IMG/VR virus record: IMGVR_UViG_3300032893_000021
Span: 1 to 64,000 of that record
DNA: 64,000 nt
Direction: 5' to 3' (one strand)
Source of the DNA: a virus
Position 1 is the first letter of the stretch. Each line of letters begins with the position of its first letter. Shown in pieces: positions 9,217 through 38,088 of this stretch. A program made the translations under genes and the position numbers. Under the pieces are notes generated by a model. That model worked only from the letters and a program-made list of their open reading frames with translations. It ran no database searches and was not told the origin of the DNA.

Positions 9217-9219
9217 CCC

Positions 9220-9504: not shown

Positions 9505-9507
9505 CGA

Positions 9508-9982: not shown

Positions 9983-10303
9983 TTGGATGCGGCAACCCAA
10001 TCGCTCCTCGCCACATCGCTGGTGTCGGTATACGCCGCCCTGCTTGCGGTCGGGGCCGTGTCCACGGCCGTCCGCGTGGCGCAGTTCCGCCGCACCGGCC
10101 GCCGCCCTCCGCGCCTCCTCAAGAGGGATCTCGCGCTCCTGTCCGGGCACTCGGTCGCGCTCGCGGCGGTCCTGGTCCCTCGCGCCCTCGGCATCCTCGA
10201 CGCTGTCGACGGCAGCGCGGTCTGGTGGGTACTCGTGGGGGGCGGCCCGATCGTCGCGATCACCGTCTACGTGTACTACGAGCTCTTCGTGATCGGGCAC
10301 TGA
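9983..10303 (+). CDS. polytopic membrane protein, 106 aa
   Basis: TTG start directly after the preceding stop. Three hydrophobic segments lie at about 8-30, 50-72 and 80-103, with a basic cytoplasm-type loop (RRTGRRPPRLLKR) between the first two. A second holin-class or membrane accessory protein of the lysis region. Confidence 0.6.
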   Translation: MDAATQSLLATSLVSVYAALLAVGAVSTAVRVAQFRRTGRRPPRLLKRDLALLSGHSVALAAVLVPRALGILDAVDGSAVWWVLVGGGPIVAITVYVYYELFVIGH

Positions 10304-10713
10304 TGGACCAGCGGATCCTGCTCTACGTCAAGTGGCGGGACGGCGACTGCGTCGCCCGGTTCGCGAACCACCCGCTCTGGGCGACGCGCTGGCCGATGCT
10401 CCAGGGCCTGCCGGACCCGGGGCCCTGCCGCGACCGCTTCGGCGCGCTCCTCGACGCCGTCCGCCCGGTCCCGGCGATGCACCTCGAGGGCGACCACGTC
10501 CCGGACGCGGACGGGCACGCGATGGGGGCCAAGGCGCCCGACGACGCGGCGCACCTCTGGGGCGTCTGCGCAGGGCACCACACGGGGACGTCGGCCGGGC
10601 GGCAGTGGGCGACGCACGCCGAGGTCAGGCGGGCGGCGGCGCTCTACATCGCCGCCGCCAACGAGGCGGCCGCGGCGCGCTGGATGAGGCCGCCGGAGGC
10701 GGTGGCGTCGTGA
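10303..10713 (+). CDS. HNH-endonuclease-like protein, 136 aa
   Basis: The core MHLEGDHVPDADGH...HLWGVCAGHHTG parallels the HNH layout, where the first His follows an acidic strand (EGDHV) and a later C-x-x-H-H segment ends the beta-beta-alpha-metal motif. The usual C-x-x-C structural pair is incomplete, with only Cys45 and Cys86 in place, so the metal site may be reduced. HNH proteins often sit near terminase and support packaging nicking; here the gene lies within the lysis region. Nuclease activity is unproven. Confidence 0.55.
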   Translation: MDQRILLYVKWRDGDCVARFANHPLWATRWPMLQGLPDPGPCRDRFGALLDAVRPVPAMHLEGDHVPDADGHAMGAKAPDDAAHLWGVCAGHHTGTSAGRQWATHAEVRRAAALYIAAANEAAAARWMRPPEAVAS

Positions 10714-10958
10714 GCCGCGCCGCGCTCGCCGTCCTGTCGCCGACGCTGGTCGTCTACGCCCCGGCGTCCGGGACCAAGGCCGACCTGCACTACCTGCAGA
10801 CGGCGCTGGCCGACGCGGCCGCGGATCTCGGCATCAGGGTGCTCGTCGTCCCGGGCCCCGCCGACGTCGTCAGCCTGGTCGACTGGCCCGGGATCGCCGA
10901 GGCCGCCGAACGGGTCTCCGAGGCGATCGCCCTGCGCCTCTCCGAGGGGCCGCCGTGA
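10710..10958 (+). CDS. hypothetical alpha/beta protein, 82 aa
   Basis: GTG overlaps the preceding stop. The strand-helix-strand order (LAVLSPTLVVYAP; ADLHYLQTALADAAADLGIRVLVVPG) suggests a small Rossmann-like or flavodoxin-like half-domain. No catalytic motif. Confidence 0.5.
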   Translation: MSRAALAVLSPTLVVYAPASGTKADLHYLQTALADAAADLGIRVLVVPGPADVVSLVDWPGIAEAAERVSEAIALRLSEGPP

Positions 10959-11362
10959 ACTGGCTGGTGGCAGTCCAGGCCGTCGCCATCGTGGCCGTCG
11001 TCGCCATCCTCGACTACGCCCGCAGGTCAGCCGAGCGAGCCCGCGCCAGCGCCGCGTCGGAGGCGGCCGACAACCTCGCCCGGGCCCTCCGCGCCGAGGC
11101 GGCCCTGGACGCCTGCGAGGCCGACAGGGTCAGGGACCGGCCGCGCGCCCCGGCCGTCGTCTCGCCCGAGGCGAGGACGGCCCTGCGCAGGACCGTCCCG
11201 TGCGGTCACTGCGGCGGCTGGCACCTGAGGGCGTGCCCGCGCCTGAAGCGGATCAGGTACAGGCCCGACGGAGCGACGCCGCTCGAGGCCGAGTACTGGC
11301 AGGACTGGACGGACGAGGACGTCGTCTGGCCTGAGTCAGTGTACGAGGAGGGAGAGGCATGA
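10955..11362 (+). CDS. membrane-anchored zinc-ribbon protein, 135 aa
   Basis: N-terminal membrane span (WLVAVQAVAIVAVVAILDY), an Ala/Glu-rich coiled coil to about residue 60, then CGHCGGWHLRACPRLKRI, a compact C-x-x-C...H...C zinc site found in small proteins of actinophages. The C-terminus is acidic and aromatic. Coupled to the endolysin gene by ATGA. Confidence 0.6.
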   Translation: MNWLVAVQAVAIVAVVAILDYARRSAERARASAASEAADNLARALRAEAALDACEADRVRDRPRAPAVVSPEARTALRRTVPCGHCGGWHLRACPRLKRIRYRPDGATPLEAEYWQDWTDEDVVWPESVYEEGEA

Positions 11363-12132
11363 CGTACCATCACAAGCACGTCTCGGAGCTGCCGGACAGC
11401 CCGGTGGTCGAGTGCACCTGGGCGACCGGGGTCGAGCTGGCCCGGGCCGCCCTGTACGGGACCACGCGCGAGCCGCCCGCCACGGGCGTCGAGCGCGAGG
11501 CGCTCCGCGTGGCCGGGGGCGGCTCCAACGAGGGCGGCTCGACCTACATGCAGATGGCGGCCGGGTGCCAGCGCCGCTACGGCTGGTCGCCGTCCGTGAC
11601 CGAGTCCCTCGTGGCGGCGCCGGGCCGCGGGTACTTCCTCGGCGTCCAGGGCGAGTACGCCGCGCTGCCCGACCACTACAGGCGCTGGGACCCCGGCTTC
11701 GCGGCCGGGCACTCCGCCGTGGTCTACAACATCGACGGGCCGCTGATGTGGTGCGACCCGCTCGTGCCGCCGACCGTCGACGGATGGGTCGGCGAGCCGA
11801 TCTCGTGGCCGACCGTCACGGCCTACTTCAGGGCTCTGCCGGGGGCGCACATCGCGACCGCGAAGCTGGCCGTCCCGCCGCCCGCCTGGCACATGACGAT
11901 CGCCAGCGGGACGCGCGACATCGAGTACGCCCGCATGTCCCCGACCGGCTGCGTCGCCGAGTGGCTCCACTACCCGTGGAGCGGCCACGCGTCCGGCGCC
12001 CCCATCGCGACGCCGGTCGACAGGAAGACGTGCTCGACCGGGTCGGTCAACAGGCTCGCCGTCGTCAAGACCGGGAAGCTCGCCGGGAAGCTGGTCCGCG
12101 AGACGTCCCAGGTCGTGTTCCACCAGGCGTAG
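11359..12132 (+). CDS. papain-like (C39-type) cysteine peptidase, endolysin candidate
   Basis: The 257-residue protein shows a papain-fold order of catalytic residues: Cys19 in VECTWATG, His118 in AGHSAVVYNI and Asp133 in CDPLVP. The following segment up to residue 170 matches C39-like peptidases found as phage lysins and cell-wall hydrolases. It lies downstream of holin-like genes and just before a second papain-like gene. The likely substrate is the host peptidoglycan cross-bridge, but a role in virion or effector processing is not excluded. There is no signal peptide, so export would depend on the holin. Confidence 0.65.
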   Translation: MTYHHKHVSELPDSPVVECTWATGVELARAALYGTTREPPATGVEREALRVAGGGSNEGGSTYMQMAAGCQRRYGWSPSVTESLVAAPGRGYFLGVQGEYAALPDHYRRWDPGFAAGHSAVVYNIDGPLMWCDPLVPPTVDGWVGEPISWPTVTAYFRALPGAHIATAKLAVPPPAWHMTIASGTRDIEYARMSPTGCVAEWLHYPWSGHASGAPIATPVDRKTCSTGSVNRLAVVKTGKLAGKLVRETSQVVFHQA

Positions 12133-12142
12133 GAGGATCAAA

Positions 12143-13039
12143 GTGGACTACAGGCTGGGGCGGCGTCCCCCCAAGGGCGCCCCGGCGCTGATGCTCGGGC
12201 CGCTGCTCACCGGGAAGATCCCGGCCCACCCGGCGAGCGAGGACTACCTCGCCGCCCTCGGCGGCGGCTGGCAGATGCTCGGCAACGACCAGTACGGCGA
12301 CTGCGTCGCCGTGACGTGGGCGAACGTCCGGAGGCTCGTCACGGCCGTCATCGGCCCGGGCGAGCGCTACCCGACGATGGCCGACGTGATCGAGGTCTAC
12401 AAGACCCAGAACCCGGGATTCCCGTCGCAGGACGACGGGATGGACATCCAGACGCTGCTCGAGTGGCTCGTCTCGACGGGCGGCCCGGACGGCGTCAAGG
12501 CGCTCGCGTTCGCCAAGGTCGACCTGTCCTCCAAGGACGAGGTCGAGGCGGCGCTCGCGATCTTCGGCTTCCTCTGGACCGGCATCAACGTCCAGAGGGC
12601 GAACATGGACGACTTCGACGCGGGGCGGCCCTGGGACTACCACCCCGGGAGCCCGGTGGAGGGCGGCCACTCGGTCGTCTCGGGCGGCTACACCGGGGCC
12701 GCGTCGGGCGCCGACGAGCGGTTCATCACGTGGGCGGCCGAGACGTCGTTCACCGACGCGTTCTGGGCGCGCGAGGCAGAGGAGGCCTGGGTCGTGATCT
12801 GGCCCGAGCACCTCGGGACCGGGACATTCGAGCAGGGGATCGATCAGAAGGCCCTCGCCGACGCCTACACGGCGTTGACGGGGCGCCCCTTTCCCGTCGC
12901 CCCCGGTCCCCGGCCCGACCCCGCCGACGCCGCCCTCGCCGACTCCGTCAGGGTGTGGGCTTCTGCTCGGCACTCTGGCGCTAACCGGCGCGCTGCTATG
13001 GCTGTGGAGGCGTGGTTGACGGCCAAGGGCCTGGCGTAG
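12143..13039 (+). CDS. papain-like cysteine peptidase, second lysin candidate
   Basis: GTG start 8 bases after GGAGGA. The catalytic Cys54 is in NDQYGDCVAVTWA, a signature of C1-like peptidases encoded by phages and bacteria, and His176 is in EGGHSVVSGGY. ERFITWAAETSF near 193-203 fits the Asn/Trp segment that completes the site. The C-terminal 60 residues are Pro/Ala-rich and poorly conserved. Together with the upstream gene this gives two different papain-fold hydrolases in tandem. Its stop codon forms a TAGGAT box upstream of the portal gene. Confidence 0.65.
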   Translation: MDYRLGRRPPKGAPALMLGPLLTGKIPAHPASEDYLAALGGGWQMLGNDQYGDCVAVTWANVRRLVTAVIGPGERYPTMADVIEVYKTQNPGFPSQDDGMDIQTLLEWLVSTGGPDGVKALAFAKVDLSSKDEVEAALAIFGFLWTGINVQRANMDDFDAGRPWDYHPGSPVEGGHSVVSGGYTGAASGADERFITWAAETSFTDAFWAREAEEAWVVIWPEHLGTGTFEQGIDQKALADAYTALTGRPFPVAPGPRPDPADAALADSVRVWASARHSGANRRAAMAVEAWLTAKGLA

Positions 13040-13042
13040 GAT
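13037..13042 (+). promoter_or_regulatory. TAGGAT -10 box, stop-embedded, upstream of portal
   Basis: TAG is the stop of the second peptidase gene. The predicted transcript starts near 13049 and has a GC-rich leader with inverted CCGGGG/CCCCGG segments before CCCGGAGGA and the portal start. Confidence 0.45.
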
Positions 13043-13089
13043 TGGCCGGGGCCCCTCCCCGGGGCCCCCCTCTCACCCGGAGGACGGTA

Positions 13090-16000
13090 CTGGCGAACCC
13101 GAACGCGATCGCAGCGGGACTGGCGGCGAGGGCCCAGGCGCAGGGGGCGCTGGCCGGTCCCGGCTCCTCGCCCCTGACCGCCTCGTACAACCAGTGGGTC
13201 GCCGGGTCGCCGGTCGGGGGCGCGGCCCTCCCGGCCCCGTTCTACGACTTCCTCGCCGGGGCGTTCGGGCCCCTGTCCCCGATCCAGCCGATGCCGGTCG
13301 ACGTCGTCCCCCGGGACGACGAGGGCCGCCCGCTCCCGCGCCGCTGGCAGTACCCCGTCGGCTGGAACCTCCCGGTCGGACAGCCAGGCACGGAGGGCTA
13401 CCGGCTCGCCTCCTACGCCACGCTCCGCCGCCTCGCCGACGGGTACTCCGTGATCCGGGCGATGCTGAACATCCGCAAGAACGAGATGTCAGGCCTCAAC
13501 TGGGACGTCGGCGCCACGGGCGACGCGCAGTCGAGGACGAAGGGTGACAAGGGGGCCGCGAAGGACCAGCGCTCGCGGGCGGCCGAGGTCGTGCGGTGGT
13601 TCAAGCGCATCGACTCGAACTACTTCGGGTTCCAGTCGTGGTTCGAGGCCGGGCAGGAGGACCAGCTCGTCATCGACGCCGTGACCCTCCACCCGCTCCC
13701 GACGCGCGTCAAGGGGAAGGGCCTGTTCGGCTGCGGCGTCGCCGAGCTCGAGCTGATCAACGGCGAGACGATCAGGCCGCTCGTCAACATCCGGGGCGCC
13801 TCGCCGCGCTTCCCGGAGGTGGCGTACCAGCAGTACCTCTGGGGGGTCCCCCGCTCGGACTTCGCCGCGATGGCCCGGGACGAGGACGTCGAGGAGCTCG
13901 CGGTCGACTACGGCCTCGACGGTGTCGAGCCGGACGCCGAGTACACGCGGCGCGAGCTGCTGTACCTGCCGCGGAACCAGCGGACGTGGACGCCGTACGG
14001 GTTCAGCCCGATCGAGATGGCCCTGATCCCGGTCACGATCGGCATCCAGCGCCAGGGCTTCCTGCTCGACTACTTCACCGACGGGACGATCCCGGGCGTC
14101 TACGTCATCGCGGGCGAGTCGTACGTGACACCGTCCCAGCAGCGCGGGCTCCAGGACCTGATCAACGGGATCGCCGGGGACGTCGGGCAGAAGCACCGGG
14201 CGATCGTCCTGCCGCCGGGCTCCAAGACGGAGCCGCAGAAGGACATGACGTTCCAGCAGGCGGTCGACCAGGCGATCGTCGAGCAGGTCGCGATGATCCT
14301 CCACATCCAGCCGCACGAGATCGGCATGGTCCCGGGCGGCCGGACCAGCGGCCTGGGCGGCGCGGGCATGGCCCAGGTCCAGCAGGACTCGGTCGTCGAG
14401 AGCCGGACCGAGCCCGAGCGCAAGTGGTGGAAGGGGAAGTTCGACTGGCTGATCCAGGAGGTCATGGGCCAGGAGGACCTCGAGTGGAAGTGGCTCGACT
14501 TCGAGGAGGAGCAGGACGCCGAGCAGAAGGCGAACGCCGACAAGGCGGACGTCTCGATCGGCAAGCGCTCGATCGACGAGCAGCGCATCGACGACGGGCT
14601 CGACCCCTGGGACCTGCCGCTCACCAAGACCCCGTTCGTCATCGGCGGGCCGTCCGGCATCATCCCGCTCGACCCCTCCGTCCCGCCGCCCGCGGCGCCC
14701 GCCCCGGCCGGGCCCGGCGGCGCCCCGGGGCCCGGCGGCTCGCCCGCCCAGGGCGCCCTGGCGGAGGCGCTGAAGCCGGACGGCAAGGACGCCTCCAAGC
14801 CGAGGCACGACCCGGCCGCCGCGCTCCTGTCGGACAAGAAGAAGGACCGCCGGAAGGGCCGCAAGGAGCTGGCCGACCGGTTCGCCGACAACCTCAAGGA
14901 CGCCGTGAAGGACAAGCCCGCCGTCCTGGGCGGCGCCGCCGGGCCCGGCGCGGCACTCGAGCCGTCCTCCGCGGGCGAGGGGGCCGACAAGGCCAAGGGG
15001 GCCACGGTCGCCGACCTGATGAAGTGGCGCACCAGGTACAACGACTCGAAGCTGCCGCGGATCGTCCACGACTACCTGCTCCGCTCCTACCCGAAGGGCG
15101 ACATCGACTGGTCCGAGGACCCGGCCATCGCCTGGGAGTTCGATCCCCACGTCAAGCTGTCCGACATCGACATGGCGCGGCGCCCGGGCGGGCGCGACCC
15201 GTCGAAGGTGTCCGCGATCGCAGACACGGTCGGCAAGGGCGCGTCGATGGACCCGGTCGTCCTCGTCGAGTACGAGACGCCCGACGAGGCCGGGCTGAAC
15301 ATCGCCGACGGCTGGCACCGCACGCTGGGCGCCGAGAAGGCGGGCGAGGACGAGGTCCCGGCGTTCGTCGGGCGCGGCGTCCCGGACAAGTACCGCGACC
15401 TGATCGACGGCCGCATGCAGGACGACTCGGGCAGCAAGAAGAAGGCCGCGCTCGCCGAGCTGTCAGTCCTCGGGCGGTACGTCCGGAAGCACGGGTCGGC
15501 CGAGGGGTTCGAGGCCCGCGCGATGGACCCCGACGTGGTCAGGCTCTTCAAGGCCGAGACGGCGCGTGGCGAGACCGGCCCGGCCCTCGAGCGCGCCCGG
15601 CGCCGGGTCCTGAAGGAGGGCGGCAACCCGCAGGCCCTCCGCGACTGGTACAACGCGGGCGCCGACGGCCAGATCGACTGGGGCTCCGACGGCGACTTCG
15701 ACCAGTGCGTCTCGGTCGCCTCGAACTACATGTCGGACGAGGACGCCAGGGGCTTCTGCAACCTCCGGCACCAGGACGCCGTCGGCGGCGCGCCGGGGAC
15801 CGAGAAGAACTTCAGCGTCGGCTCGCCGCTGGCCTCCGGCCTCGCCCCGTACGACCTCGACACGGGCGAGCGCCCGGCCATCGGCCCTCGGTGCACGTCC
15901 TGCGGCGCCGCGCTGTTCCCGGGCTCGGCCGACTACGGCGACGGGCGATGCGCCGACTGCCAGATCAGCGAGGACGTCCAGCGCCGGTCGCCAGGCGAGC

Positions 16001-16842
16001 CGATGTTCAACGACTCGGCCCCGGCCGTCCTGCTCCGCGCGATCGAGGCGGAGCTCACGCGGCGCGGCGTCGACCTCGCCAAGTGGAACCCCGACCAGCC
16101 CCGCGACGACAGGGGGCGGTGGACGGCGGGCGGCGGCCCGTCCGGCGAGGTCCCGGTCGTCCAGGACACCCGGAAGATCGGCGACTTCCCGCAGGAGGTC
16201 CAGGACGCCGCCCGGTCGGTCACCGCGCGCGCCGCGGCCGCCGAGCCCAGGGTCACCGCAGACATGGCGCACATCGCGTCGGCCACCGGCGGGAACCTGA
16301 ACGAGCGCTTCACGGGGCCGGACGGCAAGGAGCACGGGACGCTCGACGCCGTCCTGAAGAGCGACAGCTCGACCGCCCGCAAGATCGCGGACGACATCCG
16401 CGACAAGGGGTACACGACGGCCCAGTCGGCGGCCCAGGTCTACGACGCCCTCCGGTACACGGTCACGTACCCGGCGGGCGAGTACGCCAAGGGGGCCGAG
16501 CGGGCGATGGACGACCTGAAGGCGGCCGGGTACGAGCCGCTGCGCGGCAAGGACTTCTGGAGCGACGCGAGCCAGGGGTACGCCGGGGTCAACACCGTCT
16601 GGGGCGACCCGCGCACCGGGCAGAGCTTCGAGGTCCAGTTCCACACCCCGGAGGCCCTCCAGTACAAGGAGGGCGTGGGGCACCCGGTCTACGAGGCCTG
16701 GCGCGCGCAGCCGGAGGGCTCGGCCGCCCGGGCGTACTACGACTCGAAGGTCAACGAGGCCTGGCAGCCGATCCGGGACGCGGTCCCCTACCTGGACGCG
16801 CTCAAGGACTTCATGACGGGGATGTTCCCGCCGCGGAACTAG
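13090..16842 (+). CDS. portal protein fused to ParB-like, zinc-ribbon and RelA/SpoT-like domains
   Basis: Numbering from the CTG start (1250 aa), residues 1-520 are the phage portal: YSVIRAMLNIRKNEMSGLNW, LLYLPRNQRTWTPYGFSP and LHIQPHEIGMVPGGRTSG are typical segments. About 560-640 is a Pro/Ala/charged linker. Residues 695-765 look like a ParB/Srx-type domain (NIADGWHRTLGAEKAG). Cys935, Cys938, Cys951 and Cys954 form a zinc ribbon. The linker tag KWNPDQPRDDRGRWTAGG begins at 998. About 1045-1240 resembles RelA/SpoT nucleotidyltransferase toxins, with DALRYTV, YAGVNTV and FEVQFHTPE corresponding to the conserved D..R, Y..hN/H and E.Q..T motifs. The CTG follows GGAGGA by 5 bases. A GTG at 13012 is in frame but overlaps the upstream gene and adds unlikely sequence. 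The toxin would be carried on the portal vertex. Confidence 0.85.
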   Translation: MANPNAIAAGLAARAQAQGALAGPGSSPLTASYNQWVAGSPVGGAALPAPFYDFLAGAFGPLSPIQPMPVDVVPRDDEGRPLPRRWQYPVGWNLPVGQPGTEGYRLASYATLRRLADGYSVIRAMLNIRKNEMSGLNWDVGATGDAQSRTKGDKGAAKDQRSRAAEVVRWFKRIDSNYFGFQSWFEAGQEDQLVIDAVTLHPLPTRVKGKGLFGCGVAELELINGETIRPLVNIRGASPRFPEVAYQQYLWGVPRSDFAAMARDEDVEELAVDYGLDGVEPDAEYTRRELLYLPRNQRTWTPYGFSPIEMALIPVTIGIQRQGFLLDYFTDGTIPGVYVIAGESYVTPSQQRGLQDLINGIAGDVGQKHRAIVLPPGSKTEPQKDMTFQQAVDQAIVEQVAMILHIQPHEIGMVPGGRTSGLGGAGMAQVQQDSVVESRTEPERKWWKGKFDWLIQEVMGQEDLEWKWLDFEEEQDAEQKANADKADVSIGKRSIDEQRIDDGLDPWDLPLTKTPFVIGGPSGIIPLDPSVPPPAAPAPAGPGGAPGPGGSPAQGALAEALKPDGKDASKPRHDPAAALLSDKKKDRRKGRKELADRFADNLKDAVKDKPAVLGGAAGPGAALEPSSAGEGADKAKGATVADLMKWRTRYNDSKLPRIVHDYLLRSYPKGDIDWSEDPAIAWEFDPHVKLSDIDMARRPGGRDPSKVSAIADTVGKGASMDPVVLVEYETPDEAGLNIADGWHRTLGAEKAGEDEVPAFVGRGVPDKYRDLIDGRMQDDSGSKKKAALAELSVLGRYVRKHGSAEGFEARAMDPDVVRLFKAETARGETGPALERARRRVLKEGGNPQALRDWYNAGADGQIDWGSDGDFDQCVSVASNYMSDEDARGFCNLRHQDAVGGAPGTEKNFSVGSPLASGLAPYDLDTGERPAIGPRCTSCGAALFPGSADYGDGRCADCQISEDVQRRSPGEPMFNDSAPAVLLRAIEAELTRRGVDLAKWNPDQPRDDRGRWTAGGGPSGEVPVVQDTRKIGDFPQEVQDAARSVTARAAAAEPRVTADMAHIASATGGNLNERFTGPDGKEHGTLDAVLKSDSSTARKIADDIRDKGYTTAQSAAQVYDALRYTVTYPAGEYAKGAERAMDDLKAAGYEPLRGKDFWSDASQGYAGVNTVWGDPRTGQSFEVQFHTPEALQYKEGVGHPVYEAWRAQPEGSAARAYYDSKVNEAWQPIRDAVPYLDALKDFMTGMFPPRN

Positions 16843-19926: not shown

Positions 19927-19929
19927 GAT
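19924..19929 (+). promoter_or_regulatory. TAGGAT -10 box, stop-embedded, at head of effector block
   Basis: Contains the TAG of the preceding gene. A start 7-8 bases downstream would coincide with the GTG at 19937, giving a leaderless transcript for the first effector gene. Confidence 0.5.
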
Positions 19930-19936
19930 GGACGAC

Positions 19937-20422
19937 GTGGACGCGATGACTGACCTGACGGCGCTCCCGACCGAGGCGCTGGTCGAGATCAGGGAGGCGC
20001 TGAAGTACAACCCCGACCAGCCGCGGGACGAGCGCGGGCGCTGGACGGCGGGCGACTCCACCGGCGCCGCCTGGGCCGACGCGAAGGCGCGGATCGCCGC
20101 CCACGGCCCCGGCAACTGCTACCCGGCCGCCGCCACCCTGGCGATGCGAGCCGACGAGCTCGGGCTCCGCAACGCGCGCGTCGTCCACGCCACATGCACT
20201 GGGCAGGGCGCCATCGCCGGGAAGGCGTTCGGCCACGCCTGGGTCGAGGCGGACGGCCCGCACGGCATCCGCGTGGCCTACGACTACAGCGGCGGCAAGG
20301 AGGTCGAGCTCCCGGCGTCGTTCTACCGGCAGCTCGGAGAGGCGCGCGGCGTCAGGGAGTACACGCCGCGTGAGGCGATGGTCCAGATGGTGAAGACGGG
20401 GCACTACGGGCCGTGGGCCTGA
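19937..20422 (+). CDS. tagged papain-like effector candidate, 161 aa
   Basis: I chose the leaderless GTG; an ATG 9 bases upstream would add three residues but would overlap the -10 box. The N-terminal helix TALPTEALVEIREALKYN runs into the tag PDQPRDERGRWTAGD. The following domain carries Cys in GPGNCYPAAA, His in KAFGHAWVEA and Asp in VAYDYSGGK, the order expected of papain-like peptidases or transglutaminase-type enzymes. In known polymorphic-toxin systems such domains act on host proteins. The substrate is unknown. Confidence 0.65.
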   Translation: MDAMTDLTALPTEALVEIREALKYNPDQPRDERGRWTAGDSTGAAWADAKARIAAHGPGNCYPAAATLAMRADELGLRNARVVHATCTGQGAIAGKAFGHAWVEADGPHGIRVAYDYSGGKEVELPASFYRQLGEARGVREYTPREAMVQMVKTGHYGPWA

Positions 20423-21900
20423 CCGGGCTGTTCACCGAGGCTGGCCGCGCCGGGGTCGCCCTGGCGCCGGACCACCGCGCGCGCGCCGAGGCGGCCAGGA
20501 CGCTCCGCTCGGACGCCCGCCGGGAGGCGACCCTCGCCCCGGTCGTCGAGCGCGTCCGGCGCGAGCTGCTGGAGGCGGCGCGCGAGGGCGCCGTCCTGCG
20601 CGAGCCGGTGGCCCGGAAGTTCGACCCGTCCGAGCCGCGGGACGAGCGCGGCGAGTGGACGGCCGGTGGAGAGGATTCGATCAGGACGGAACTATCGTCG
20701 GCGCGCGAGGCGATGGATGCGGCCAACGACGCGATGTACATGGCCGAGCAAGACGGAGACGACGACGCATACGACCGAGCGGCAGCAAGGTGGGCGGAGG
20801 CCAACAGCCGACACGAGGCCGCCGAGGACGCGCTGCGCGGGCTTGGCAAGCGCGACGGAGACAACCAGCATTCCGGATCTGCGACCAAGGCCGAGTGGGA
20901 CGAGGGGGCGCACCCCCGCGTCCCGGCCGGGCAGGAGGGCGGCGGGGAGTTCACGGACGGCGCGGGCGGCATGACGCTGGAGCGGTACCGCGACGAGCGG
21001 GCCCGGATGGAGGCCCTGACGGACGCCAACCGGGCGGAGCTCCGGGGCGGGTCCATGACCGGCCCCCCGCCGCGGACGGCGGCCGGTGTCGGCCCCCCGG
21101 CGGACGTGTGGGCGGCGTGGCACGAGCGTGCCGAGTACAACGTCGCCCAGGCGGCCGCCCAGCGCGGCGAGACGGCGGAGGAGTTCACATCGAAGCTCCA
21201 GGCCCAGGCGGCCGCCCTCGTCGACAAGTCTGACGTCAGGGTCCGGTGCACGCCGGACGTCCTCGGGAAGATCCTCGGGGACGGCAGGTTCAAGTCCCAG
21301 TTCGAGACGAGGACCTCGAACGGCCTGCTGAACCTGGCCACGCGCAGCGGCATGGAGACGCAGGCGTTCGGCTACGCGCCGCGCCTCGACACGTCCGCGC
21401 GCCCGGTCTACGGCTACATGAACACGCGCGGCCTGACCGGGGCCGACGAGGAGAAGAGCTTCTGGCTCCAGCAGTACGGCGGCGCGATCGTCCACCTCTC
21501 GGACGCCGTCCGGGACCGGACGACCTTCACGTTCGGCGACTCGCTCCCGATGTCGGGCGTGCCGTGCCCCGTCTCCGACCCGCGCTGGGAGGCGACCGAC
21601 CCGCAGTACGACCATCTCGGCTGGCACGTCGACCGGTCGTCCTTCCCGCCGGGGCTCGACTACTCGGAGCAGTACCCGGCCGCGTGGTCGTGGATGGTTC
21701 GGGAGGGGCCGGACGCCGACGCGGTCGCCGCGACGACGCCGTCCGGGGCCACGCTCGACTACATCGAGGCCCAGGTCCACGGCGGCGTCAGCGCCTCCGA
21801 CATCGCGTCGGTGGAGCTGCCGTCCGAGCCGGACCCGGCGCTCAAGGCGCTCCTCGACGGGGCGTCGATCCCATACACGGTGTACGGAGGCAAGTCGTGA
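20413..21900 (+). CDS. doubly tagged effector candidate of unknown activity, 495 aa
   Basis: GTG overlaps the preceding gene. An N-terminal helical region is followed by tag type A (FDPSEPRDERGEWTAGG, 70-86) and, after a charged coiled region, tag type B (HPRVPAGQEGGGEFTDG, 168-184). The C-terminal domain contains KILGDGRFKSQFETRTSNG, RPVYGYMNTRG and RTTFTFGDSLP, a set of motifs I associate with uncharacterised toxin-like domains in phage and plasmid proteins. Adjacent conserved Arg/Tyr/Glu residues suggest an enzyme, possibly ADP-ribosyltransferase-like, but I cannot assign it. Confidence 0.6.
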   Translation: MGLTGLFTEAGRAGVALAPDHRARAEAARTLRSDARREATLAPVVERVRRELLEAAREGAVLREPVARKFDPSEPRDERGEWTAGGEDSIRTELSSAREAMDAANDAMYMAEQDGDDDAYDRAAARWAEANSRHEAAEDALRGLGKRDGDNQHSGSATKAEWDEGAHPRVPAGQEGGGEFTDGAGGMTLERYRDERARMEALTDANRAELRGGSMTGPPPRTAAGVGPPADVWAAWHERAEYNVAQAAAQRGETAEEFTSKLQAQAAALVDKSDVRVRCTPDVLGKILGDGRFKSQFETRTSNGLLNLATRSGMETQAFGYAPRLDTSARPVYGYMNTRGLTGADEEKSFWLQQYGGAIVHLSDAVRDRTTFTFGDSLPMSGVPCPVSDPRWEATDPQYDHLGWHVDRSSFPPGLDYSEQYPAAWSWMVREGPDADAVAATTPSGATLDYIEAQVHGGVSASDIASVELPSEPDPALKALLDGASIPYTVYGGKS

Positions 21901-22357: not shown

Positions 22358-25300
22358 GTGCCCGACCTCCTCTCGGCGCTCCCGACCGCCGACCTCGCCC
22401 GCCTGCGCGCCGACCTGCTCCGCTACTCGGAGGACGAGGCGCGGGACGACAGGGGGCGGTGGACGGCGGACGGGGGTTCGGTGGACGTCGGGCCCGGCTT
22501 CCGCACGTCGGGCGTCCCGCGCGAGTACGGCGACCGCGTCCTGTCGACGGTGGGGCGCCTGTCGGCCCAGTTCCCCGGCGTCCGCATCGCGGTCGACGCC
22601 CGGACCGGCGACGACTTCCGGGCGACCTCGACCGGCAGGGACAAGCCGGGGACGGTGACGATCGCCCGATGCGAGGGCAACGCCCTGCGCGGCCAGACCA
22701 TCGTGCTCAACGGTGGCCAGGTGTCCCTCGACGACGTCAACCCCCTGACGGCCGTCCCCGGCCCCGAGGGCGTCGCGGCCCACGAGTTCGGCCACGCGGT
22801 CGACGCGTACATGATGACGGCCGGGGCCGGTCTCAAGGACCTCGGCGGGGACGCGATGCGCGACTACCTCGACTGGCGCCAGCGGCTCCTCTCGACGCAG
22901 GGCATCCGGGGCTTCGGGTCGTCCTACTTGACGGGGCGCCTCGACGCCTCGGGGAGGTACGAGCGGGTCCGCCTCGGGTGGTCGAAGCTGTCCTGGTACG
23001 CGGGCACCGACCCGCGCGAGGCCGTGGCGGAGGCGTTCAGCGCGGCGTACACGCCCGGCAGCCCGGGCTACGACCACCCGGCGTGCGCCGAGCTCCGCGA
23101 CGTGCTCGCGAGGGCCGGGTCGGCCGCTTCGGCGTCGGGCAAGGCCGTCAAGTTCGACGACTCCGAGGAGCGCGTCCCGGCCGGGTCGCCCAACGGCGGC
23201 CAGTGGACCTCCGGCGGCGAGGCGCTCGCGTCCGAGGCGGCGGCGTACGAGGCGCGGTGGCCGAACAAGGCGGTGCTCGACACGGTCCCCGAGGGCCTGA
23301 CGCCGGAGCAGACCGCGCTCCTCGCGTCGCTCGGGCTCGACAAGCCCCAGCCCGCGATCCAGCCGGACTTCGCCGCGATCGCCGACCCGCACCACGGCCT
23401 TGAGGCGGTCCGCGAACTCGCCCGGCTGCGCGAGGCGTTCCCGTCGATCCGCGTCTCGTCGCTGGAGATGCGGATGCCGTCGACGCTGATCAACTCGTCT
23501 CCGTCGGACGACCAGCGCGTCGTGGCCCGGACGGTCATCGACTCGATCGTGCTCAACCCCAACTGGTACGGCAAGGACGGGCCGTCCCTCGACCAGTTCT
23601 CGGACGGCGCCAAGTACCACCCCGACGGGTGCGGGACCCCGGCCGGGTGCATCACCCACGAGTTCGGCCACGTCCTCGACCACGCCCTCGAATACGACCA
23701 GACCGCCGCGGGCGAGGCGTACCGGCAGTGGCGCTCCGACTACCTCTCGTCGGGCACGCGCATCTCCGCCTACGCCCGCACGAACGAGTGGGAGGCGATC
23801 GCAGAGGTGTTCTCCGCCGCGTACGCCCCCGGCTCGCTGGCCACGGGCAACTGGGGCGCCGTCGGCCTCCGGGACGTCCTTTCCTCGACCGGCGTGTACA
23901 CGGGCAAGGCGGCGACGGCCGACCTCGCCAAGTGGAACCCCGACCAGCCTAGGGTACCCGCGGGCGAGCCAGGCGGCGGCCAGTGGGAGGGCGGCTCGCC
24001 GGTCGCCGGGGCGTTCCGGTCCGCGCTCGACGGGATGCCGAGGCCGTCCGGCTCGATCGCCGCCCAGGTCGCGTTCCACGACTGGTTCAAGCAGGCCTCC
24101 GGGGGCGACGGGCAGTGGGACGTCTCGGCGCTCTCGCGGCAGCCGGACACGGGGCGCTTCTCCGCCTCGATGGCCGTCCTCTCCGCCTCGTTCCCCGACG
24201 TCACGGGCGGCGTCGGCGTCAAGGTGACGGACGGCTACGCGATCCACGCCGGGGTCGGGACCGACGCCGTCGCGTGGGCCGACTCCCTCGCGTACCCGCA
24301 GACGGTGACGCTCGAGAAGATGATGTGGGCGACCGGGGCGACCCGGCTCCAGTGGGGCGACGAGGCGTCGAACGGCTTCCACCCCGAGGGCTGCTGGGCA
24401 CCCGAGGGCGTGGCCGCGCACGAGTTCGGGCACCTCGTCGACGCCGTGCTCCGCGACACGGCGGACGACGAGAGGGTCGCCGACCTGAACGCCTTCCTCC
24501 TGACCCACACCGCCTCGGGCTACGGCGCGCGGTCCGGCACCGAGAACTTCGCCGAGTGGTTCGCGGCCGCGTACTCCCCGACGTCGCCGCTGGCGGGCTC
24601 CGCCGACTGCCGCGACTTCCGGGCGATCGTCGAGTCGTCGATGGTCCGCAAGTACGACGCCAGCGAGGCGCGGGACGAGCGCGGCCGCTGGACGGCCGGG
24701 GGCGGCGGGCTCGACGGCCTGACGCTCCGGCTCGACGGCGTCCACCCCGACATCCGCCCGGGGCTGGAGTCGACGCTCGCCCGCATGGCCGACCGCTACC
24801 CCGTCCTCCGCGAGCGCGGCCTGATCGTCAACCGGCTCCCGACGATCGGCGGCGCCCTCGCCGACACGGCGTACCCGATGCCCCAGACGTTCTACAAGGC
24901 GTCCATCAACCTGAGCTCCGCGTACGAGCGACCCGGCGACCCGAGGTGGGCCGAGGAGCCCGGGTGGTCCGTGTCGCAGGGCCCCGAGGGCACGCTGGTC
25001 CACGAGATCGGGCATGCGCTCGACATGTACAACGGCGGCGCCGGGGCTCGGGCACTGGAGGCGTCCGGGCCGTCGCGGGGCGCGTACGGCGGGACCCGGT
25101 ACGGCACGGCGGCCTCGCTGTACGGCGCGACCGGCGGCCCCGACGAGCGGTTCGCCGAGGCGTTCGCGCAGGTCAACCTCGCGCCGGAGTCGGAGTGGTC
25201 GCCGGACGCCCGGATCGTCGCCGCGCTGTACCCGCCCGTCACCAAGGCCGCGGCGCCCGACTTGACCAAGTCGCTCCGGTTCCTCGACCGGGCGCGCTCG

Positions 25301-26704
25301 ATCCTGCGGGCCGGGTTCCTCGCGGCCCTGGTCGGCGGCGCCCGGGACGCCGCGGCCGAGGCGGGCGAGGACCCGGACCTATGGGGCGAGGGCGACTTCG
25401 GGGACGAGGCGGACGCCCTCGTCGAGGGCCAGCACCACTGGATCGCCGGGCTGGCGTCGGTCCTCGCGCTCGGGCAGCTCACAGAGGGGATGCTCTCGTC
25501 GCGGGCGGGGCTCTACGCGAGCGGCATGTACGGCGCGTACGAGTCCGGCTTCGCGGACGGCGTCGGGGCGTCACGGCCGGGCTGGACGGCCACGTGGAGG
25601 ACGGAGGGCGACAAGGAGGTCTGCGAGCTCTGCGCCGACCGCGACGGGGCGTCCTGGCCCGCCGACGGGTCGTACCCGCTCCCCGGCGAGGGCGGCTTCG
25701 GCGACCAGTGCGACGGAGGCCCGAACTGCCGGTGCGCGGTCGACTACACGTACGACGGCGACGCGGCCCAGGCCCCCGACGCCCCAGAGGAGCCGCTCGA
25801 CGTCGCGGCCGCCGCCACGGCCGACCTGCTGAAGCTCCGCGACGGCGCTATGTGGGACGAGTACTGGAACTCTAGGTCCCCGGCCAAGGTCGCCGACCCG
25901 GACTGGACGGAGCTCCCGACCCCGACGCTGCTCCGGGTGGCGGCGGTCCTGCGCAAGTACAGCGAGGACCAGCCGCGAGTACCGGCGGGCAGCGCAGAGG
26001 GAGGCGAGTTCGCGTCGGCCGGTGGCGAGTCGGCCCACCTCGCGGCCATGTCGAGGATGGACGCGGCCGGGGTCGCGGCGTACGTCGAGGCCCACACGGG
26101 CACCAGGGTCGACTACTCCCGCACGGACAACTACGGTCACGCGATCCCCGACGCCAAGCCGAAGATGTCGTGGCTCCGCCCGGCGATGGCGCGGTTCGTC
26201 GCGCTCCACGAGCAGTTCCCAGGAGTGACCGTCACCAAGATCGGGTTCGGGACCGCGTCCGGCAAGAACGCGGGCAGCGTGCTCGCGTTCTGCACCAGGG
26301 ACCCGTGGAACGGGACCTCGGAGATCACGCTGGTCACGACGTACTGGGCCGGGCACTGGGGCATCAATATGGCAGAGGGCTGGAACGCGGCCGGGCCGAG
26401 CCCGGAGGCGATCATGACCCACGAGTTCGGCCACGCCGTCGACGCCGCCGCCTTCCGGGCGGCGGACCAGCAGACGGTCTACCCCGACTCCGACCTCGGG
26501 TGGCGCCTCAACACCTTCATGAAGGCCCCGGCGATCTCGGGCTACGGGCGGTCGGACGACTCCGATCTCCGCAAGGAGAAGTTCGCCGAGCTGTTCGCGG
26601 CCGTGTACGCGCCGACGGGGAACCCACCGGCAGACCAGGAGGCCGGGCTGCGGGCGTACCTCGCGGCGGCGCTCGGGACCGCCAAGGCCGCGCTCGTCGG
26701 CTAG
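22358..26704 (+). CDS. MuF-type minor head protein carrying five zincin metalloprotease-like domains
   Basis: In this 1448-residue protein each presumed effector is preceded by the linker tag (begins 22 type A, 265 B, 525 B, 765 A, 1200 B). Zincin motifs are HEFGH at 142, HEFGH at 434, HEFGH at 688, HEIGH at 882 and HEFGH at 1355. Each is followed 60-80 residues later by E-x-x-A-E-x-F (EAVAEAF, EAIAEVF, ENFAEWF, ERFAEAF, EKFAELF), which supplies the third ligand of a gluzincin. About 990-1130 resembles the Mu F head domain, with C1089-x-x-C1092 and C1124-R-C1126 (VCELCADRDG; NCRCAVDY). MuF proteins sit inside the head near the portal and are a known chassis for polymorphic toxins. Here effectors lie on both sides of it. 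The start codon is GTG. Confidence 0.8.
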   Translation: MPDLLSALPTADLARLRADLLRYSEDEARDDRGRWTADGGSVDVGPGFRTSGVPREYGDRVLSTVGRLSAQFPGVRIAVDARTGDDFRATSTGRDKPGTVTIARCEGNALRGQTIVLNGGQVSLDDVNPLTAVPGPEGVAAHEFGHAVDAYMMTAGAGLKDLGGDAMRDYLDWRQRLLSTQGIRGFGSSYLTGRLDASGRYERVRLGWSKLSWYAGTDPREAVAEAFSAAYTPGSPGYDHPACAELRDVLARAGSAASASGKAVKFDDSEERVPAGSPNGGQWTSGGEALASEAAAYEARWPNKAVLDTVPEGLTPEQTALLASLGLDKPQPAIQPDFAAIADPHHGLEAVRELARLREAFPSIRVSSLEMRMPSTLINSSPSDDQRVVARTVIDSIVLNPNWYGKDGPSLDQFSDGAKYHPDGCGTPAGCITHEFGHVLDHALEYDQTAAGEAYRQWRSDYLSSGTRISAYARTNEWEAIAEVFSAAYAPGSLATGNWGAVGLRDVLSSTGVYTGKAATADLAKWNPDQPRVPAGEPGGGQWEGGSPVAGAFRSALDGMPRPSGSIAAQVAFHDWFKQASGGDGQWDVSALSRQPDTGRFSASMAVLSASFPDVTGGVGVKVTDGYAIHAGVGTDAVAWADSLAYPQTVTLEKMMWATGATRLQWGDEASNGFHPEGCWAPEGVAAHEFGHLVDAVLRDTADDERVADLNAFLLTHTASGYGARSGTENFAEWFAAAYSPTSPLAGSADCRDFRAIVESSMVRKYDASEARDERGRWTAGGGGLDGLTLRLDGVHPDIRPGLESTLARMADRYPVLRERGLIVNRLPTIGGALADTAYPMPQTFYKASINLSSAYERPGDPRWAEEPGWSVSQGPEGTLVHEIGHALDMYNGGAGARALEASGPSRGAYGGTRYGTAASLYGATGGPDERFAEAFAQVNLAPESEWSPDARIVAALYPPVTKAAAPDLTKSLRFLDRARSILRAGFLAALVGGARDAAAEAGEDPDLWGEGDFGDEADALVEGQHHWIAGLASVLALGQLTEGMLSSRAGLYASGMYGAYESGFADGVGASRPGWTATWRTEGDKEVCELCADRDGASWPADGSYPLPGEGGFGDQCDGGPNCRCAVDYTYDGDAAQAPDAPEEPLDVAAAATADLLKLRDGAMWDEYWNSRSPAKVADPDWTELPTPTLLRVAAVLRKYSEDQPRVPAGSAEGGEFASAGGESAHLAAMSRMDAAGVAAYVEAHTGTRVDYSRTDNYGHAIPDAKPKMSWLRPAMARFVALHEQFPGVTVTKIGFGTASGKNAGSVLAFCTRDPWNGTSEITLVTTYWAGHWGINMAEGWNAAGPSPEAIMTHEFGHAVDAAAFRAADQQTVYPDSDLGWRLNTFMKAPAISGYGRSDDSDLRKEKFAELFAAVYAPTGNPPADQEAGLRAYLAAALGTAKAALVG

Positions 26705-35472: not shown

Positions 35473-38088
35473 CTGGCGACGCGGGCCGGTAGGGGCGACG
35501 ACATCGAGTACGGCTGGGTCCCGATCGTCAAGGTCGAGCGGGACCCGCTCGACCCGTCGGTCAGGATCGTCTACGGGAAGGTGACCGACGGGACGGTGGA
35601 CTCGGACGAGCAGATCGTCGACCCCGAGTACGCCCGGAAGGCGATGGCCGACTGGTACGAGACGGCCGCGAACGTCCGACAGATGCACAGCACGAACCTG
35701 CCACCGGCGGGCAAGGGCATCATGCTTGAGCACCGCGACGGGGACGGGGCCGAGGGCGGCGAGTGGGTCCGGTCCCGCGTCGTCGAGCCGACCGCGGTCA
35801 AGCTCTGCGACGAGGGGGTGTACGGCGGCTACTCCGTCGGGATCGCCCGGCCCCGGATCGTCCGTGACGCCCGGGCCCGCGGCGGGCGCATCGTAGGCGG
35901 GCGCATCGTCGAGATCAGCCTGGTCGACCGGCCCGCCAACTACAACGCCAAGTTCGCCCTGGCGAAGGCCGACCGGTCCGGCAGGATGGCCTACGTCGGG
36001 AAGGTCGTCTCGCTCCGGCCCGCCGAGGTGGACCCGGCGCCGCGCGCGCCGCGCATCCGCGAGGGCTCGGTCATCAAGATCACCGAGGCCGACGGCTCAG
36101 TCGCCACGGGGCGCGTCGTCACGGCCGGGGCGCGCTGGGCGCGCATCGACACGCTCGGCTACGGCGGGACCGGGATCGAGCTAGTGGACCGGCGGGGCGC
36201 GAGCGTCGAGAAGTACAGCGACTCACAGGAGCGCGACGACCACGGGCGCTGGTCCGGAGGTGGCTCGGGCGAGGGCACCCGGTCATGGCAGGACAGGGTC
36301 CCACCGGCCCACCAAGGGCGCGAGGGGCACGATGTCCACCTCGTCCTCAACGGCGGGGCCAACGTTCGCGGCACGGTGTCGTCGGTGACGCCCGACAAGA
36401 CAGTCTTCCGGACGGGAGCCACGACGGCCGGGTCGAGCCCCGGCATGAGGACGAACGGGGATCCCCCCCAGACGTACGTCGACCACTCGGAAGTGGCCCA
36501 GATCAAGGACTACACGACCAACGAGCGCGTGAGCCCGAACAACATCGTACTCGGCACAGTCAAGGCGCAGGCGGGGCCTAATCCGGCCGACATGGAGGAC
36601 TCTGTGGCAGACGACGCGGACACCACCAAGGGGGCCGACCTCGCGTCTGCCGCCGAGAACATCGCCGACGCGGCGGACGACCTCAAGGACGCGGCCGGGG
36701 ACCTCGGCGACACGGCCGGTGGGGACGACTCGGACGACGGGGACGACTCGGACGCCGACAAGGCGGCCAAGGGCAAGGTCCCGCCCCAGTTCCTGGAGCA
36801 CCAGAAGCCGAAGGCTGGCGCCGACGCACCGGCCGACGGCGCTGCGGACGACGACTCCGCCGACAAGGCCGCGGGCCGCAAGTGCCCGTCCTGCGGCGGG
36901 ATGTTCGGCGACTCGGACAAGTGCGTGAAGTGCGGCAAGGCCTGGACGACCGACGGCACCGACGACGCCGAGAAGGCCGAGCGCAAGGCGGCCAAGGCCG
37001 CGCGCAAGGCCGCCAAGGCCGCGGCGGCCAAGATCGTCGCGGCGCCCGGCGACGGCGAGGAGGTCTCCTACCTCGTCCGGCGCGCGCACGACGTCACCTG
37101 CGGAGCATACGGGACGGACGCGCTGGCGGCCGCCTACCCGTCCGTCGAGAAGAGGCTCGGGGACGCGCTCGGCGCGTCCGCCCGCGACGCGGCCTACGCG
37201 GCCCTCGCGTCCGAGGTCCGGGAGGGCGGGACGCCAGCGGGCATCGTGGCGCTCGGCAAGGCCATCTCCGCCCTCGACGCCCTGTCGGGGCACGCCGAGG
37301 CGCTCGCCGCGGCCCGCGAGGGCCTCGTCGAGGCGTTCCGCGCGGCCAACAAGGACGCCGCCGAGCCGGTCGGGCTCCCGAGCCCGTCCGAGACGATCAC
37401 GCCCGGCCAGTTCCGGCGCGGCTACATCTCGGAGGGCCACCAGGACCAGGGCGGCACGGGCCACCCGCACGCGACGATCCCGTCTGCCACCCACCCGCTG
37501 GACCCCGCCTCGATCGACCGCGGTCCGCTGACGGACGGGCACCAGCGCTACCTGGCCTCCAAGATGGCCGAGGTCCACGACGGCCTCGCCGACTGGAGGC
37601 CCGAGCTCTGCCTGATGGACGCCGGTGGCTCGAACGCCTTCGACCGGCAGCCGTACCCGTCGCCGTCCCAGAGGCCGCCCGCCCTGCCGTCGATCCCCAA
37701 CCGGTCGGCGGACTCCGGCCCCGTCCCCGTGGTCGCCGTCCCGGCCGCGGCGCCCGTCGCCAAGACGTACACCCCCGAGGAGTTCGAGGCGGCCCTCTCG
37801 AAGGCCACCGCGCCCCTCGCCACCAAGATTGCCAACCTGGAGCAGGCGTACGAGGACCTCGCGTCCTCGCCTGACACGACGGCCGCCGCCCCGCGCGGGC
37901 TCCGGCAGCCGTCGGCCTCGGACAAGCTGGCCACCGCAGACGCCGCCAAGGCCGCGCGCAAGGCGCGGAAGGCGGAGAAGCGCTCGCGGCGCGCCGGTTT
38001 CTACGAGGACCTGGCAGGCTCCTCCGACCCCGTCACCCGGAACCGAGCGGTCGACTGGCTCGCCCGCCACGGCCGGTCCATCAACTGA
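35473..38088 (+). CDS. prohead protease (S78-like) fused to a scaffold-like region, with effector-type tag
   Basis: From the proposed CTG (871 aa) the protease occupies about 1-170: His72 in RQMHSTNLPPAGKG, Ser121 in GGYSVGIARP and the closing EISLVDRPANYN follow the S78-type order. YSDSQERDDHGRWSGGG at 248-264 is the linker tag otherwise seen before effectors. Four cysteines between 471 and 487 (CPSCGGMFGDSDKCVKC) form a zinc ribbon. The remaining Ala/Asp-rich helical region resembles a scaffold that is removed by self-cleavage in many phages. GAGGAGG lies 6 bases before CTG; the first alternative start, GTG at 35581, would delete the conserved N-terminal strands. Confidence 0.85.
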   Translation: MATRAGRGDDIEYGWVPIVKVERDPLDPSVRIVYGKVTDGTVDSDEQIVDPEYARKAMADWYETAANVRQMHSTNLPPAGKGIMLEHRDGDGAEGGEWVRSRVVEPTAVKLCDEGVYGGYSVGIARPRIVRDARARGGRIVGGRIVEISLVDRPANYNAKFALAKADRSGRMAYVGKVVSLRPAEVDPAPRAPRIREGSVIKITEADGSVATGRVVTAGARWARIDTLGYGGTGIELVDRRGASVEKYSDSQERDDHGRWSGGGSGEGTRSWQDRVPPAHQGREGHDVHLVLNGGANVRGTVSSVTPDKTVFRTGATTAGSSPGMRTNGDPPQTYVDHSEVAQIKDYTTNERVSPNNIVLGTVKAQAGPNPADMEDSVADDADTTKGADLASAAENIADAADDLKDAAGDLGDTAGGDDSDDGDDSDADKAAKGKVPPQFLEHQKPKAGADAPADGAADDDSADKAAGRKCPSCGGMFGDSDKCVKCGKAWTTDGTDDAEKAERKAAKAARKAAKAAAAKIVAAPGDGEEVSYLVRRAHDVTCGAYGTDALAAAYPSVEKRLGDALGASARDAAYAALASEVREGGTPAGIVALGKAISALDALSGHAEALAAAREGLVEAFRAANKDAAEPVGLPSPSETITPGQFRRGYISEGHQDQGGTGHPHATIPSATHPLDPASIDRGPLTDGHQRYLASKMAEVHDGLADWRPELCLMDAGGSNAFDRQPYPSPSQRPPALPSIPNRSADSGPVPVVAVPAAAPVAKTYTPEEFEAALSKATAPLATKIANLEQAYEDLASSPDTTAAAPRGLRQPSASDKLATADAAKAARKARKAEKRSRRAGFYEDLAGSSDPVTRNRAVDWLARHGRSIN

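What the first reader, a model, noticed from the sequence alone, without database searches (positions are those of the whole stretch)
22358..26704. A MuF head protein carrying five zincin domains, each introduced by a linker tag
Five HE(F/I)GH motifs, each followed by E-x-x-A-E-x-F, occur at residues 142, 434, 688, 882 and 1355 of one 1448-residue protein, with a MuF-like C-x-x-C...NCRC domain near 990-1130 in between. MuF proteins are a known chassis for polymorphic toxins. Single effectors at the C-terminus are usual, so five protease-like domains on both sides of MuF look unusual. I infer that the head could deliver several metalloproteases with different targets.
Basis: partly seen in the sequence, partly recalled or inferred. 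Interest (0 to 1): 0.85.

Follow-up and report, generated by a model that had tools for sequence, protein, structure and literature searches.

The report
Phage head protein with five tagged metalloproteases
A phage head protein carries five different protease-like domains, each headed by the same short peptide tag, and that tag turns out to be a widespread, apparently undescribed label that phages put in front of the effector domains they attach to head proteins, which may be how such cargo is loaded into and cut free inside the virus head.

Summary
One 1448-aa ORF (22358-26704, +) holds five HE(F/I)GH...ExxAE zincin domains, five linker tags and a MuF-like cysteine module. The domains are diverged paralogues (25-34% identity). 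They keep the zinc ligands and catalytic Glu in all five. Predicted models match lethal-factor/PPEP (M34) proteases. Multi-zincin polyvalent proteins (one to five copies) and MuF-metallopeptidases are already described, so the five-zincin MuF is a new variant of a known kind.

The tag is the more interesting part. On this contig all ten copies lie in five genes of the head module: portal, two effector genes, the MuF protein and a prohead-protease-like gene. Elsewhere the tag joins portal, MuF and other N-terminal modules to at least 14 unrelated C-terminal families, several of them polymorphic toxins. It also sits at the N-terminus of head maturation proteases of three cultured actinophages. 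A second tag (FGGDRSAAGRYAAxxRW) has the same partners: XkdF protease, zincin, Zeta toxin, ART, DUF3626. Most likely these are capsid-loading and/or prohead-protease-processing signals, like T4's capsid targeting sequence but repeated before each cargo domain. Virion delivery, cleavage and protease activity are inferred, not shown.

The parts
22358..26704 (+). Whole ORF: MuF-like head protein with five tag-zincin units, 1448 aa
   Evidence: codon-usage score among the highest of the window
22412..22492 (+). Tag T1 (LRYSEDEARDDRGRWTADGG)
   Evidence: tag profile 40.8 bits; the profile was built from these ten tags
22493..23143 (+). Zincin Z1 (HEFGH at aa 142, ExxAE at 221)
23141..23227 (+). Tag T2 (VKFDDSEERVPAGSPNGGQWTSGGE)
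   Evidence: 36.1 bits
23228..23920 (+). Zincin Z2 (HEFGH at aa 434)
   Evidence: AF2 model pLDDT 70.9, pTM 0.73; best PDB matches lethal factor and PPEP; BFVD 'Lethal factor'/'Minor capsid protein' E 4e-4 to 8e-4
23921..24007 (+). Tag T3 (AKWNPDQPRVPAGEPGGGQWEGG)
   Evidence: 34.8 bits
24008..24640 (+). Zincin Z3 (HEFGH at aa 688)
   Evidence: phrog_7153 E 8.6e-6
24641..24721 (+). Tag T4 (RKYDASEARDERGRWTAGGGG)
   Evidence: 46.4 bits
24722..25312 (+). Zincin Z4 (HEIGH at aa 882), most diverged
   Evidence: AF2 model pLDDT 54.9, pTM 0.61; best PDB matches lethal factor and PPEP/Zmp1
25313..25807 (+). MuF-like module; cysteine signature CxxC...NCRC at aa ~1077-1131
   Evidence: hhalign probability 92.4 to four MuF proteins over 54 columns; phrog_595/2662/3517
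25946..26032 (+). Tag T5 (RKYSEDQPRVPAGSAEGGEFASAGGE)
   Evidence: 35.2 bits
26033..26701 (+). Zincin Z5 (HEFGH at aa 1355)
13012..16842 (+). Portal protein with a tagged C-terminal domain (tag at aa ~1024: AKWNPDQPRDDRGRWTAGGG)
   Evidence: phrog_2662 E 1.2e-37, Pfam portal 5.8e-10; C-terminal domain phrog_2859/7625
19928..20422 (+). Tag followed by a transglutaminase/papain-like domain (weak)
   Evidence: tag 51.2 bits; PF13471 E 0.008, below cut-off
20413..21900 (+). Two tags followed by a DUF3626 domain
   Evidence: PF12294 E 3.8e-12; tags 49.0 and 31.7 bits
35581..38088 (+). Prohead-protease-like domain (GYSVGI, EISLVDRPA) + tag + long C-terminal region; gene before the putative MCP (38262-39908)
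   Evidence: domain shared at 36-52% identity with proteins downstream of the portal in L254/L257/L261/L262; no Pfam hit, so the protease assignment rests on motif and position; tag 42.6 bits

Best explanation
The ORF is a polyvalent MuF-like head protein whose cargo is five diverged M34-like (lethal-factor/PPEP-type) metalloprotease domains. Each domain is headed by a copy of a ~25-residue peptide module, [KR][YFW]xxxxPR(DExGRW or VPAGxxxGG[QE]W)TxGGG. My best reading is that this module is a virion-cargo signal: it is recognised in the prohead by the scaffold or prohead protease, so that tagged domains are retained inside the head and cut apart there, and the freed domains later leave with the DNA. 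This is how T4's capsid targeting sequence works, but here the signal is repeated once per domain. The zincins then act in the newly infected cell as protease effectors on host proteins. Shown: the domains, tags, gene context, modularity and the shared partners of two tags. Inferred: loading, cleavage, ejection, activity and targets.
For: (1) All ten tags found on this contig lie in five genes between TerL and the putative MCP (portal, two effector genes, MuF-like protein, protease-like gene). None were found in the tail genes or the remaining 25 kb. (2) A tag query against annotated phages matched six records; five are the extreme N-terminus of head maturation proteases (Nocardia phage P3.1, Mycobacterium phages DrLupo and Predator, the last two each held twice). 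(3) Of 138 tagged proteins from IMG/VR and the annotated phages, 26 hit Pfam portal and 14 CdiA-CT RNase A; others hit Tox-REase-5, CdiA_C, deaminase, ART-PolyVal, MuF and Peptidase_S78. (4) The tag is a shuffling junction: 35 proteins with a portal-type N-part carry 14 unrelated C-part families, and 35 with an unrelated helical N-part carry 11. (5) Tags conserve amino acids more than codons. Flanks of the long form carry at most ~1.2 bits per column on the N-side, against 2-3.6 in core columns outside the search pattern. (6) A second tag has the same partner set: XkdF (8 of 95), Zeta toxin, ART, DUF3626, zincins; it sits ~25 aa behind the protease GFSIGG motif in 5 of 7 XkdF proteins found by motif. 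(7) Other tag-separated arrays exist: L273, L040, L263, L010, and L132 with four ART domains. (8) T4 CTS precedent: targeting plus protease processing in ~10 residues, with a possible equivalent on the protease itself (PMC9026906).
Against: No proteomics was available: packaging, cleavage and injection of any tagged protein are unproven. The putative MCP carries no tag, so the tag is not a general maturation site. The protease-like gene of this phage is not reached by any Pfam or NCBIfam profile. In the cultured phages only the protease carries a recognisable tag, and those matches are individually weak (E 0.3-7). Among the tagged ORFs from alphaproteobacterial prophages no protease was recognised by motif. 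The long-form tag and the second tag found no match in the cultured-phage collection at E <= 1, possibly because of the low-complexity filter. The zincins could instead process the polyprotein itself.
Confidence: 0.5

Rival explanations
1. The zincins are self-processing enzymes: they cut the polyprotein (at the tags or elsewhere) before, during or after packaging, and are not effectors on host proteins.
For: Iyer et al. 2017 propose autoprocessing for polyvalent-protein zincins, with P1 DdrB processed before packaging (PMC5512222). Zincins sit beside other domains in L263, L273 and L255. The nearest folds include PPEPs, which act on Pro-containing sites, and the tags contain Pro.
Against: Most tagged proteins contain no zincin: only 10 of 183 tagged ORFs have any HExxH, so tag cutting cannot generally need one. 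Self-processing needs one active domain, whereas here five diverged domains all keep their catalytic residues, which suits several substrates better.
Confidence: 0.2
2. The tag is only a docking or loading signal (binds scaffold, portal or capsid interior) and is not cut; the protein stays one chain in the virion.
For: The tag is at the extreme N-terminus of three head maturation proteases, as a targeting signal would be. N4 virion RNA polymerase is packaged unprocessed, and its zincin region is required for encapsidation (PMC5512222).
Against: One copy per chain should do for docking, yet copies precede each domain (five here, six and seven in L010). A 1448-aa five-domain chain is a harder passenger for a portal and tail channel than single domains.
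Confidence: 0.2
3. The tag is a flexible spacer of no specific function, spread together with toxin cassettes by recombination.
For: The Gly/Ser-rich tail and position between domains look like a linker; it is a junction of module shuffling.
Against: Strong conservation of R, P, G and W at protein level with different codons. It occurs in proteases and portals. A second tag is equally conserved with the same partners.
Confidence: 0.08

Closest known systems
Polyvalent proteins with zincin-like MPTase domains (Iyer et al. 2017, PMC5512222)
   Same: Large multi-domain phage proteins; one to five zincins per chain, often interspersed with other domains; MuF a hub of the same network; associated with portal-terminase phages
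   Different: Here all five effector domains are of one family on a MuF-like protein, each headed by the same short tag; no such tag was found described in the papers read
MuF polymorphic toxins (Jamet et al. 2017, PMC5576092; Zhang et al. 2012, PMC3482391)
   Same: MuF chassis with an effector; 20% of putative MuF toxins have a metallopeptidase
   Different: Those are described with a toxin in the C-terminal extension; here effectors are on both sides of MuF and in series, and no immunity gene was recognised
T4 capsid targeting sequence and internal proteins (PMC9026906)
   Same: Short shared peptide on otherwise unrelated head-internal proteins, with a possible equivalent on the prohead protease itself; combines targeting and protease processing
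   Different: Unrelated sequence; ~25 rather than ~10 residues; often internal and repeated before each domain; cutting not shown
Peptidase family M34 (lethal factor, PPEP/Zmp1)
   Same: Best structural matches; HExxH with a downstream Glu and a conserved Tyr
   Different: Phage-encoded, below Pfam ATLF cut-off, about 12-17% identity in the best structure alignments, substrates unknown

Membership tests
Zincin metallopeptidase, M34/lethal-factor-like | HExxH plus a third zinc ligand (Glu) on a following helix | tested here: met
   five of five domains by sequence
Zincin metallopeptidase, M34/lethal-factor-like | Fold matches M34 structures | tested here: met
   Z2 best PDB hits lethal factor and PPEP, E 0.012, probability 1.00, TM ~0.5; Z4 the same at low model confidence; Z1, Z3 and Z5 not modelled
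Zincin metallopeptidase, M34/lethal-factor-like | Pfam ATLF gathering score | tested here: not met
   20.9 bits against a cut-off of 27.4; so called M34-like, not filed as M34
Zincin metallopeptidase, M34/lethal-factor-like | Zinc-dependent peptidase activity | not testable with these tools
   needs assay
MuF head protein | MuF domain by profile | tested here: inconclusive
   Pfam PF04233 not hit; NCBIfam not hit; cysteine part matches MuF proteins, hhalign 92% over 54 columns; PHROG head-protein hits
MuF head protein | Encoded in the head module near the portal | tested here: met
   5.5 kb downstream of the portal gene, in the TerL-portal-MCP region
Polyvalent phage protein (Iyer et al. 2017) | Several effector-type domains in one chain beside virion genes | tested here: met
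   five zincins and a MuF-like module between portal and putative MCP
Capsid targeting sequence (T4 type) | Short conserved peptide shared by unrelated head-associated proteins, including the protease | tested here: met
   works-like only, the sequence is unrelated
Capsid targeting sequence (T4 type) | Needed for packaging and cut by the prohead protease | not testable with these tools
   no virion proteomics available
MuF polymorphic toxin with immunity gene | Cognate immunity gene next to the toxin | not tested
   no immunity family was recognised next to the gene, but no dedicated search was made

The most novel reading that the evidence does not exclude
Tailed phages use short conserved peptide tags (at least two classes: R(D/V)...GRW/GGQW and FGGDRSAAGRYAAxxRW) as a general address and release signal for virion cargo. 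Any effector domain behind a tag is loaded into the prohead and cut free by the prohead protease. Arrays such as this five-zincin protein, the seven-tag protein of L010 and the four-ART protein of L132 are strings of ready-made payloads.
Probability: 0.4. Interest if true: 0.88.

Novelty: new variant of a known kind. Interest (0 to 1): 0.7.

Why it matters
If the tag is a loading/processing signal, it gives a sequence handle for finding virion-delivered effectors in phage genomes, most of which are now unannotated. It would also explain how very different toxin domains get into heads through portal, MuF and protease fusions. It makes testable a long-standing question: how head-borne effectors other than those of T4-like phages are sorted and released. 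The five-zincin protein is an extreme case in which one family was multiplied and diverged on one chain, which suggests several protease targets.

Tried and rejected
Whole-protein tblastn against cultured phages and a single-sequence IMG/VR scan found nothing. Tag as a DNA repeat for recombination: rejected, since matching residues often use different codons. Five zincins as an assembly duplication: rejected, domains are only 25-34% identical. An alignment of two-domain segments for folding collapsed onto the overlaps and was not used. Single-linkage clustering of N-parts mixed portals with a helical domain; it was replaced by seed-based counts. Literature searches for tag strings returned no paper; the library lacks most subscription journals. 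Long-form tag and second tag gave no match in cultured phages at E <= 1. NCBIfam gave nothing for the protease-like domain or MuF-like module.
Full report
What is there. The window is the first 64 kb of an 89,286-bp linear IMG/VR virus record, G000, with 73.6% G+C. Its head module includes a large terminase (2298-4160), a portal protein (13012-16842), two small effector genes (19928-20422, 20413-21900), the ORF in question (22358-26704), a prohead-protease-like gene (35581-38088) and a putative major capsid protein (38262-39908, phrog_13692, assigned by size and position). A tape-measure gene (57385-61047) shows it is a tailed phage.

The ORF. The 1448-aa protein contains, in order, T1-Z1, T2-Z2, T3-Z3, T4-Z4, a MuF-like module, T5-Z5 (T = tag, Z = zincin). 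Every zincin is preceded by its own tag. The five zincins are paralogues at 25-34% identity. All keep HExGHxxD and ExxAExF, and an alignment with four relatives adds an invariant Tyr. AlphaFold gave a confident core for Z2 (pLDDT 86-96 over residues ~141-230 of the segment) and a low-confidence model for Z4. For both, the best solved structures are lethal factor and PPEP/Zmp1. Phage 'Lethal factor' and 'Minor capsid protein' models are the best viral matches. So single M34-like domains on minor capsid proteins already exist in databases; L006 (MuF then zincin) and L255 (zincin then MuF) are examples here.

How unusual is five? Iyer et al. 2017 (PMC5512222; [quoted passage not shown] Jamet et al. 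2017 (PMC5576092) report metallopeptidases in 20% of putative MuF toxins. Among 279 loci and 2.5 Mb held at that point, the window protein is the only one with five full zincin signatures; one protein, seen in two records, had two. More multi-zincin chains with a second tag were found later. The five-zincin MuF is therefore at the top of a known range, not outside it.

The tag. A profile built from the ten copies on this contig finds them in the portal, the two effector genes, the MuF-like protein and the protease-like gene, and nowhere else on the record. Searching annotated phages with a consensus tag returned six weak matches. Five of them are the extreme N-terminus of head maturation proteases from three different phages. 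A bacterial-genome scan also hit its limit, with listed hits nearly all from Hyphomicrobiales and other Alphaproteobacteria. In the consensus, positions not fixed by the search pattern (K-[YF]-[SN]-P-D-Q before, N-P-D inside, G-rich after) carry about 2-3.6 bits each, while flanking positions carry about 1 bit or less.

What the tag joins. Of 138 tagged proteins, 26 match Pfam portal and 14 CdiA-CT RNase A, with single hits to Tox-REase-5, CdiA_C, deaminase, ART-PolyVal and MuF and two to prohead protease. Splitting proteins at the tag, 35 proteins with one portal-type N-part carry 14 unrelated C-part families. A further 35 proteins with an unrelated helical N-part carry 11, and the largest C family sits behind portals, the helical module and others. 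This is the behaviour of a polymorphic-toxin junction. Several chains carry tags in series: L273 (ParB-like, C39, tag, further domains, tag, ART-PolyVal, tag, MuF, tag, zincin, ART), L040 (three tags, Zeta toxin, MuF), L263 (tag, Zeta toxin, tag, ParB-like region, zincin), L010 (six and seven tags) and L132 (four ART domains separated by tags, next to a MuF-tag-zincin-like gene). L132 is a second case of one effector family repeated behind tags. 'ParB-like' in L040, L263 and L273 is my reading of a DGHHRW/DGTHRW motif, not a profile hit.

A second tag. The two zincins of L279/L280 are each preceded by a different conserved peptide, KASFGGDRSAAGRYAAEQRWKGH. A pattern scan found 57 stretches, not limited by rows. 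Of 95 proteins carrying it, 8 match the XkdF prohead protease, 7 Zeta toxin, 5 ART, plus acetyltransferases, DUF3626 and HNH. Zincin motifs occur in 15 of the tag2 ORFs, some in overlapping records. In 5 of 7 XkdF proteins found by motif the tag follows the GFSIGG motif by about 25 residues. Prohead protease, ART, Zeta toxin, DUF3626 and zincin are thus shared partners of both tags. Both contain an R-x-x-x-G-R-aromatic core, so they may be distant relatives or convergent.

Mechanism. The nearest worked-out parallel is the T4 capsid targeting sequence: about ten residues that direct internal proteins into the head and also govern cutting by the prohead protease, with a similar role suggested for the protease's own propeptides (PMC9026906; SPN3US parallel in PMC7411985). 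I infer that the tags here do the same job and that repetition before each domain lets a long chain be cut into single domains that can leave through the portal. The zincins would then act on host proteins. Steps shown: architecture, conservation, gene context, modularity. Steps inferred: loading, cutting, ejection, catalysis, targets. Self-processing by the zincins, pure docking without cutting, and a passive linker are rivals, with the evidence listed.

Limits. The MuF assignment rests on the cysteine part. The protease-like gene is assigned by motif and position only. The host is unknown. Absence of a literature description is limited to an open-access library and to exact-string searches.

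Noticed in passing
L279, L286, L289, L304, L315 and others (57 IMG/VR stretches): A second conserved peptide, KASFGGDRSAAGRYAAEQRWKGH, repeated before zincins and found with ARTs, Zeta toxins and XkdF proteases; about ten copies on one contig piece (L289).
   Followed up: partly
L132:608-3142 and 3-740: Four ADP-ribosyltransferase domains in series separated by tags, beside a gene with a MuF end, a tag and a HEITH zincin-like domain: a second homo-array.
   Followed up: partly
L056:1744-7920 (-): Eight closely spaced ORFs, each with a tag, like a battery of tagged effectors.
   Followed up: no
L010:2236-6783 and 7346-12661: Two very long ORFs with six and seven tags; domains include 2H phosphoesterase, InPase and a HEASH motif.
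   Followed up: partly
window 13012-16842: Portal protein with a long C-terminal extension: a possible ParB-like segment, then tag, then a domain of phrog_2859/7625 of unclear (possibly RelA/SpoT-like) type.
   Followed up: no
window 46249-49875: 1208-aa ORF made of many degenerate repeats around ALAASxxPAGxxxRxxAR; function unclear.
   Followed up: no
L253:15266-17128: Intein-splicing domain hit (PF14890 E 4.7e-8, just below cut-off) in an ORF downstream of the portal of a related phage.
   Followed up: no
window 22358-22420, 19928-20005 and 25880-25950: Upstream of several tags lies a similar short helical-looking stretch (LPTxxLxxLRxxLLKY), so the functional unit may be longer than the tag core.
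   Followed up: no
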